NCBI GenBank assembly: GCA_944324655.1 | Contig: CALUXF010000001.1 | Coordinates: 1-64,000 of the forward strand | Length of the DNA stretch: 64,000 nt | Direction: 5' to 3' | DNA from: Candidatus Avelusimicrobium aviculae | GTDB lineage: Bacteria; Elusimicrobiota; Elusimicrobia; Elusimicrobiales; Elusimicrobiaceae | In this document: positions 55,459 to 55,808 of the stretch, in pieces | Layout: every line of letters starts with the position of its first letter | Numbering within the stretch: the first letter of the stretch is position 1 | The notes under the pieces: model-generated | Told to the model about the DNA's origin: nothing | The model's database searches: none | The model's input: the letters and a program-made list of their open reading frames with translations, nothing else | Program-made: the position numbers and the translations under genes

Positions 55459-55511
55459 CAACAAAAAACCCCGCACGAGCGGGGTTTAAATGGTGGTAGG
55501 AATAGGATTCG
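55459..55511 (-). repeat. 53-bp direct repeat, copy A (tRNA-Tyr 3' end plus terminator)
   Basis: Matches 55690-55742 except for a few bases in the terminator loop: T run, CCCCGC hairpin, CCA end, acceptor 3' strand and CGAATCCTATT of the T arm. A second 3' end of tRNA-Tyr upstream of the real one. Confidence 0.9.
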
Positions 55512-55651
55512 CCTTCCGGTAAAATTCCTGACGGAATTTTCCTGCAGGCCGGGCTCGCGGTTTTTGCCTTTCGGGCTTTGCCCTCAAGCAAAAACAACGC
55601 TGCGCCTTTCGAATCCTAACGCAGGCCAAGCAGTTGGCCTGCTTTCCTACC
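55491..55651 (-). ncRNA. tRNA-Tyr-like structured RNA element
   Basis: 161 nt on the minus strand beginning GGTAGGA and ending TCCTACCACCA, the same acceptor arms, discriminator and CCA as tRNA-Tyr, followed by a terminator. The interior is not a tRNA. A perfect hairpin CAGGCCAA-ctgc-TTGGCCTG replaces the D arm. AGGATTCG pairs with CGAATCCT where the T arm should be, enclosing GCAAAAA/TTTTTGC with GGGC/GCCC, and AAAATTCC-gtca-GGAATTTT. No anticodon arm. Either a tRNA-Tyr copy invaded by a palindromic element or a genuine tRNA-like RNA. Confidence 0.55.
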
Positions 55652-55689
55652 CGGCTACAGATGGTTGTTTGCCGGCTGTATAGGTCAAA

Positions 55690-55742
55690 CAACAAAAAAC
55701 CCCGCATACGCGGGGTTTAAATGGTGGTAGGAATAGGATTCG
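55690..55742 (-). repeat. 53-bp direct repeat, copy B
   Basis: Terminator and 3' end of the intact tRNA-Tyr; partner of 55459-55511. Confidence 0.9.
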
Positions 55743-55808
55743 AACCTATGTAGGGCGTAGCCCGACGGTTTTACAGACCGTTGCTTTTGACCGCTCAGCC
55801 ATCCTACC
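55722..55808 (-). tRNA. tRNA-Tyr (anticodon GTA), CCA encoded
   Basis: 87 nt with long variable arm (class II tRNA). Acceptor GGTAGGA/TCCTACC, anticodon loop CTGTAAA, T loop TTCGAAT, CCA encoded. A terminator (CCCCGC hairpin plus T run) follows at 55694-55720. Confidence 0.97.

What the first reader, a model, noticed from the sequence alone, without database searches (positions are those of the whole stretch)
55459..55808. tRNA-Tyr-like 161-nt RNA next to tRNA-Tyr
The element has the tRNA-Tyr acceptor arms, CCA end and terminator but a rebuilt interior made of nested perfect stems. The D arm is replaced by a hairpin, and the T arm position is extended by a long branched structure. Compensating pairs (GGTAGGA/TCCTACC, AGGATTCG/CGAATCCT) are intact, arguing against simple decay. 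Part of the interior recurs, diverged, at ~55366. It may be a tRNA-like regulatory RNA or a palindromic mobile element that targets tRNA.
Basis: partly seen in the sequence, partly recalled or inferred. Interest (0 to 1): 0.75.

Follow-up and report, generated by a model that had tools for sequence, protein, structure and literature searches.

The report
RNA elements matched to neighbouring tRNAs
The odd stretch beside a tyrosine-tRNA gene is one copy of a previously uncatalogued family of small structured RNA elements that sit just after many different tRNA genes in two bacterial phyla, each carrying a sequence that base-pairs with its own neighbouring tRNA, which suggests a base-pairing-guided mobile or regulatory RNA.

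Summary
The feature is real and is one member of a large family. On the minus strand, 55493-55653 reads P5 - hairpin 1 - P6 - conserved core - copy of the tRNA-Tyr 3' end, downstream of tRNA-Tyr, with its own terminator copy. A covariance model finds copies in 64 of 66 genomes of the genus (up to 27 per genome), 120 of 235 of its class (Elusimicrobiota) and, with a second model, 59 of 380 Patescibacteria. Copies follow tRNAs of at least 27 anticodons, and tmRNA. P5 and P6 are complementary to the 3' strand of the adjacent tRNA's T-arm and acceptor stem (13.4 of 17 pairs, against 9.5 for other isoacceptors). Where the element's own tail has diverged in Elusimicrobiota, P6 still fits the tRNA better (27 cases to 0). 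Single copies sit between direct repeats running from the T-loop to P5, as after an insertion. Rfam has no match; the closest known thing is E. coli RtT RNA, same architecture, unrelated core. Best reading: a selfish RNA element targeted to tRNA genes by base pairing. The enzyme is unknown; transcription and mobility are inferred, not shown.

The parts
55722..55808 (-). tRNA-Tyr (GTA) gene, intact, the cognate tRNA of the element
   Evidence: ARAGORN, Rfam RF00005 64.4 bits
55726..55742 (-). target strand in the tRNA: T-loop 3' half, T-stem 3' strand and acceptor 3' strand (CGAATCCTATTCCTACC)
   Evidence: sequence; complementarity to P5/P6 scored
55697..55718 (-). intrinsic terminator of tRNA-Tyr (part of the left direct repeat)
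   Evidence: terminator scan
55645..55651 (-). P5, GGTAGGA: complementary to the tRNA-Tyr acceptor 3' strand, 7 of 7
   Evidence: row L004
55621..55642 (-). hairpin 1, GCAGGCCAACTGCTTGGCCTGC; loop ACTGCT nearly invariant, stem covarying
55610..55619 (-). P6, TTAGGATTCG: complementary to tRNA-Tyr T-arm 3' strand, 9 of 10
   Evidence: row L004
55512..55609 (-). conserved core (stem A with GGCGCAGCG..CGCGAGCC, stem B CCTGCAGG..CCGGAAGG), type I
   Evidence: 47 pairs in all, 29 with changes on both sides, 0 of 500 shuffles; across phyla
55495..55511 (-). own3: second copy of the tRNA-Tyr 3' end (17 of 17 identical), start of the right direct repeat
55491..55494 (-). discriminator A plus CCA of the copied tRNA end
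   Evidence: sequence
55466..55487 (-). second copy of the terminator (right direct repeat)
   Evidence: terminator scan
55493..55649 (-). whole element as matched by the family models
   Evidence: R1 176.9 bits, E 7e-45; R2 137.6 bits
55348..55379 (-). possible remnant of an older distal copy (stem A fragment)
   Evidence: R1, filters off, 7.5 bits: weak

Best explanation
A family of small non-coding elements that insert next to tRNA (and tmRNA) genes, directed by base pairing. Each element is P5 - hairpin 1 - P6 - core, read in the tRNA's direction. P5 and P6 are a split guide of about 17 nt complementary to the 3' strand of the target's T-arm and acceptor stem; the core is a conserved structured RNA, presumably bound by an enzyme acting in trans. 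Insertion joins the core's 3' end to the T-loop position of the target and duplicates the stretch from the T-loop to the 5' insertion point. The tRNA therefore stays intact and the element ends in a second copy of the tRNA 3' end and its trailer or terminator. Arrays then grow and shrink by insertion or by recombination between repeats, cores are exchanged between loci, and distal copies erode. Shown: structure and covariation, link to tRNA, guide complementarity, direct repeats, array polarity, exchange of cores. Inferred: transcription, a protein partner, guidance during insertion, present-day mobility.
For: Guide: 107 element/tRNA pairs over 27 anticodons give 13.4 of 17 Watson-Crick pairs with the adjacent tRNA against 9.5 with other isoacceptors. 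An independent test in Patescibacteria gives 12.5 against 9.3, 0 of 300 permutations reaching the observed value. P6 fits the tRNA rather than the diverged own tail, 27 to 0. Insertion: direct repeats run from the T-loop to P5, with the repeat ending within about 6 nt of P5 in many single copies. At the tRNA-Met locus, G077 and G082 look empty where G080 is filled; G024 and G064 differ by one unit in an array. Turnover: 0 to 27 copies within one genus, patchy presence across two phyla, tRNA-proximal copies usually the better preserved. RNA in the tRNA's sense: covariation and G-U 65 against A-C 13 at paired columns. Targets include tmRNA.
Against: No mobility protein was found. Reverse transcriptase is absent from most high-copy genomes, and the few RT genes have no element nearby; integrases are in all genomes regardless of copy number. 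No copies in phage, plasmid or viral collections. P5-hairpin 1-P6 tracks the tRNA locus between species, which is also what a long-resident functional RNA would do. In Patescibacteria the own tail is mostly intact, so the trans-versus-cis contrast is weak there (8 to 2). The empty/filled comparisons are between diverged species, not strains. No transcript data.
Confidence: 0.48

Rival explanations
1. A resident functional RNA, not now mobile: each element is co-transcribed with its tRNA (by read-through, or directly where no terminator intervenes) and pairs with that tRNA's 3' half to affect its processing, folding, stability or level. Tandem duplication and gene conversion make arrays and shuffle cores.
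For: P5-hairpin 1-P6 stays with the tRNA between species while cores are exchanged; P6 stays matched to the tRNA where the core has changed type; in several groups the element starts 5-25 nt after the tRNA with no terminator between; E. coli RtT is annotated as an RNA next to tRNA-Tyr.
Against: Copy number 0 to 27 within one genus and many tRNAs without an element argue against a needed function; flanking direct repeats point to insertion; pairing with the tRNA 3' strand would disrupt the tRNA itself.
Confidence: 0.32
2. A DNA-level mobile cassette: a single strand folds so that P5/P6 pairs with the copied tRNA tail, mimicking a double-stranded attachment site recognised by a tyrosine recombinase (as integron attC sites or Xer-exploiting elements do).
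For: Tyrosine recombinases are in all 23 genomes examined; the outer helix in intact copies equals the tRNA 3' end; tandem arrays of units resemble cassette arrays.
Against: Folding in cis needs P6:own tail pairing, which is weakened in 27 of 36 diverged Elusimicrobiota copies while P6 is kept; G-U is favoured over A-C at pairs, pointing to RNA; no integrase linked to copies.
Confidence: 0.1
3. A tRNA-like RNA: the transcript folds as an acceptor/T-arm mimic, is processed by RNase P and carries CCA, and acts as a regulator or decoy.
For: In the window copy the outer helix is nearly perfect and CCA is encoded; the own tail is intact in 22 of 36 Patescibacteria copies.
Against: No compensating change follows the diverged own tail; the T-loop is replaced by about 100 nt of core; T-stem pairing is often broken.
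Confidence: 0.06
4. A passive palindromic DNA repeat (REP/BIME or MITE-like) that merely accumulates behind tRNA genes.
For: Dispersed, palindromic, multi-copy.
Against: Strong covariation across phyla, invariant non-palindromic motifs, tRNA-specific guides, near-exclusive placement after tRNA or tmRNA genes.
Confidence: 0.04

Closest known systems
RtT RNA (Rfam RF00391), E. coli tyrV/tyrT distal repeats
   Same: Tandem 178-bp units directly downstream of tRNA-Tyr, same strand; each ends with a copy of the tRNA 3' end (AATCCTTCCCCCACCACCA) and begins with a segment complementary to it (GGGGAAGGAT).
   Different: No hairpin 1 inside the guide; unrelated core: R1 does not match E. coli and RF00391 does not match 12 family-bearing or related genomes or the window. 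Here the family spans at least 27 tRNA types, tmRNA and two phyla.
Bridge RNA (IS110), omega RNA/HEARO, group II intron EBS guides (from memory)
   Same: RNA with a segment complementary to the target DNA beside which the element sits.
   Different: No encoded protein, no known motif; one fixed junction at the T-loop and direct repeats of about 20-65 bp; guide split by a hairpin.
Integron attC cassettes (from memory)
   Same: Folded, palindromic units in arrays.
   Different: No integron integrase linked; RNA-like covariation; guide tracks the tRNA, not an attC consensus.
LTR-retroelement primer-binding site (from memory)
   Same: A segment complementary to about the last 17-18 nt of a tRNA.
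   Different: CCA is not included in the complementarity, the guide is interrupted by hairpin 1, and reverse transcriptase is absent from most bearers.

Membership tests
RtT RNA (RF00391) | match to the Rfam covariance model | tested here: not met
   no hit in the window or in 12 Elusimicrobiota genomes, 11 of them carrying the family; E. coli control positive
RtT RNA (RF00391) | unit downstream of a tRNA, same strand, ending in a copy of the tRNA 3' end, often tandem | tested here: met
   E. coli compared
RtT RNA (RF00391) | released as a small RNA from the tRNA transcript | not testable with these tools
   no expression data
tRNA / tRNA pseudogene | cloverleaf with D, anticodon and T arms | tested here: not met
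   ARAGORN and RF00005 call only the true tRNA; the interior is a conserved non-tRNA core
any Rfam family | score above the gathering threshold | tested here: not met
reverse-transcriptase-dependent retroelement | RT gene in genomes with many copies | tested here: not met
   PF00078 absent from G011, G015, G019, G030, G063 and G075; RT loci elsewhere hold no element
tyrosine-recombinase / integron cassette | recombinase linked to copies, folded-site recombination | tested here: inconclusive
   integrases in all genomes irrespective of copy number
IS110 bridge RNA, omega RNA | cognate IS110, IscB or TnpB protein | not tested
insertion element with target-site duplication | direct repeats flanking single copies, absent from empty sites | tested here: inconclusive
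   repeats clear; empty/filled comparison only between diverged species

The most novel reading that the evidence does not exclude
A new class of mobile genetic element: a protein-less, roughly 130-nt RNA element that homes to tRNA and tmRNA genes by a split guide complementary to the target's T-arm and acceptor 3' strand, uses a trans-acting enzyme, and has spread over Elusimicrobiota and the tiny genomes of Patescibacteria, with E. coli RtT as an isolated analogue.
Probability: 0.4. Interest if true: 0.93.

Novelty: new variant of a known kind. Interest (0 to 1): 0.82.

Why it matters
tRNA genes are the commonest integration sites in bacteria, and E. coli RtT has stood as an unexplained oddity. 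A cross-phylum family whose variable parts are matched by base pairing to the neighbouring tRNA turns that oddity into a rule with a testable mechanism. If insertion is RNA-guided, it would be a guided insertion system with no encoded protein and a naturally re-targeted guide; if it is a resident RNA, it would be a new layer acting on individual tRNAs and tmRNA in bacteria with very small genomes.

Tried and rejected
Rfam at gathering and permissive thresholds: nothing. R1 on E. coli: none; RF00391 on Elusimicrobiota: none. RT as partner: rejected by distribution and distance (the RTs seen look like DGR and retron-type). Tyrosine recombinases: present everywhere, uninformative. H/ACA-like pseudouridine guide: the topology fits (two guide strands around a stem), but the unpaired target base at position 65 is not consistently U in the tRNA tails. 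LTR-type primer-binding site: CCA not covered and no RT. The idea that guides are rewritten at each jump: within-genome copies with 97% identical cores and different guides are equally explained by exchange of cores between resident loci. The idea that 3'-truncated remnants reveal the polarity of insertion: erosion from the side away from the tRNA explains them. Phage, plasmid and viral collections: no copies. Literature searches found no description of this family.

Full report
WHAT IS THERE. The finding lies on the minus strand beside tRNA-Tyr (55722-55808). Reading away from the tRNA: terminator (55697-55718), spacer, P5 GGTAGGA (55645-55651), AA, hairpin 1 GCAGGCCAACTGCTTGGCCTGC (55621-55642), P6 TTAGGATTCG (55610-55619), a 98-nt core (55512-55609), a second copy of the last 17 nt of tRNA-Tyr before the discriminator (55495-55511) with ACCA (55491-55494), and a second terminator (55466-55487). 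It folds far better than shuffles (z = -7.1). No Rfam family matches.

A FAMILY, NOT A SINGLE ODDITY. BLAST of the region found the interior in all 36 other genomes of the genus then searched. A covariance model built from 31 copies (R1; 47 pairs, 29 of them with changes on both sides, 0 of 500 shuffles) found copies in 64 of 66 genomes of the genus, 0 to 27 per genome, and in 120 of 235 genomes of the class, 16 genera. A second model (R2, 39 diverse copies) found 59 of 380 Patescibacteria, several copies each in genomes of about 0.4-1.3 Mb. Phage, plasmid and viral-contig collections gave none.

ALWAYS BEHIND A tRNA. In Elusimicrobiota 107 of 125 dissected copies have a tRNA gene upstream on the same strand, of 27 anticodons, most of them 10-80 nt away; those without are often distal array members or contig ends. 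In Patescibacteria 40 of 52 dissected copies lie within 130 nt of a tRNA or tmRNA; three follow tmRNA. A few copies have no tRNA that ARAGORN can see (for example L280/L350) and remain unexplained.

THE GUIDE. In every group P5 and P6 are complementary to the adjacent tRNA's 3' strand: P6 to positions of about 56-64, P5 to 66-72, with position 65 unpaired at hairpin 1. The mean is 13.4 of 17 pairs with the neighbour and 9.5 with other isoacceptors; the neighbour is strictly best in 70 of 107 and tied best in 23. In Patescibacteria it is 12.5 against 9.3, and no permutation of 300 reached the observed sum. P5 and P6 can complement the tRNA 3' strand better than the tRNA's own 5' strand does: in the tRNA-Met element (L008) P5 is GCCCA where the tRNA has a G-U pair. 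Where the element's own copied tail differs from the tRNA (36 Elusimicrobiota copies), P6 pairs better with the tRNA in 27, better with the own tail in none. This removes the idea that a tRNA-like helix is conserved in cis in that group. In Patescibacteria the tail is mostly identical to the tRNA, so the contrast is weak (8 to 2).

INSERTION AND TURNOVER. Single copies are bracketed by direct repeats. The left repeat is the tRNA 3' end with its trailer or terminator and ends at P5 (within about 6 nt in many copies); the right repeat begins in the T-loop sequence at the core's end. Repeat length varies from about 20 to 65 bp because the P5 end varies while the T-loop end is fixed. At tRNA-Met, G077 and G082 continue from the terminator into sequence resembling that which in G080 follows the right repeat. 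G024 and G064 differ by one unit at both tRNA-Tyr and tRNA-Met. In arrays the copy next to the tRNA is usually the best preserved, and remnants keep the tRNA-proximal end, as expected if deletions that reach the tRNA terminator are selected against. An island carrying a Fic-domain gene is integrated at tRNA-fMet and has its own element copy.

MODULES. Across genomes P5, hairpin 1 stem and P6 go with the tRNA (same tRNA, different genome: P6 0.75, P5 0.61, stem 0.66; different tRNA: 0.52, 0.28, 0.52). Core identity hardly depends on the tRNA (0.78 against 0.74), and in the three best-sampled genomes not at all (0.69 against 0.71). Gln-CTG in G011 and G030 has nearly the same left part but cores of different types. 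Cores of 97-98% identity sit at different tRNAs of one genome with different guides and hairpin stems. Cores are thus exchanged between loci, by gene conversion or by movement. Paired columns show G-U 65 against A-C 13 in the tRNA's sense, so the functional molecule is probably RNA read in the tRNA's direction.

MECHANISM. I think it most likely that these are selfish RNA elements placed by base pairing: the guide holds the target's T-arm/acceptor strand, the core's 3' end is joined at the T-loop, the second end is joined less precisely downstream, and the gap is duplicated. The fixed junction relative to the guide duplex, the variable second junction and the indifference to the own tail follow from this. 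The enzyme is not identified: reverse transcriptases are missing from most high-copy genomes, the few found are distant from elements, and integrases are everywhere. The main rival is a resident RNA acting on its own tRNA; locus-stable guides fit it as well, patchy and variable copy number fits it less.

KNOWN RELATIVES. E. coli RtT has the same plan: three units of 178 bp after tRNA-Tyr, each with GGGGAAGGAT, complementary to the tRNA 3' end, at the start of the RNA, and ending with the tRNA's last 19 nt. It lacks hairpin 1, and neither model recognises the other, so I count it as the same kind of arrangement, not a proven relative. The classical description of the 3.14-fold repeat is from memory; a variable number of rtT repeats in Salmonella is tabulated in PMC2658671. 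No paper found describes the present family, but the library excludes most subscription journals.

LIMITS. No transcript data; genomes are mostly MAGs; the empty/filled evidence is between species; E-values from the session's models are rough; copy counts under the stricter filters are lower bounds.

Noticed in passing
L084:1501-1659 (own genome, C6:48948-49106): A second, strongly decayed copy (26 bits) behind tRNA-Leu(GAG) in the window's own genome; its P6 no longer matches the tRNA.
   Followed up: partly
L119 (G041:C30): A Fic-domain gene island integrated at tRNA-fMet; both the intact tRNA and the displaced tRNA fragment carry an element copy.
   Followed up: partly
L348, L355, L372 (Patescibacteria): Elements directly downstream of tmRNA (ssrA), with guides matching the tmRNA 3' end.
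   Followed up: yes
L280/L350, L347 (Moranbacteria-type MAGs): Copies with a tRNA-like tail but no tRNA gene upstream that ARAGORN detects; orphan or moved copies.
   Followed up: no
L158 (G066 tRNA-Tyr locus): A separate insertion of about 250 bp with inverted-repeat ends (GGGGTGGACTAGACGTTGC) inside an element, between P6 and the core.
   Followed up: no
L181, L182 (G120, G084): Reverse transcriptases beside genes with repeated, apparently variable C-terminal segments, as in diversity-generating retroelements.
   Followed up: no
window 55655-55696: About 40 nt of extra spacer between the tRNA-Tyr terminator and P5, shared with G088, with a small inverted repeat (GTTGTTTG...CAAACAAC).
   Followed up: no
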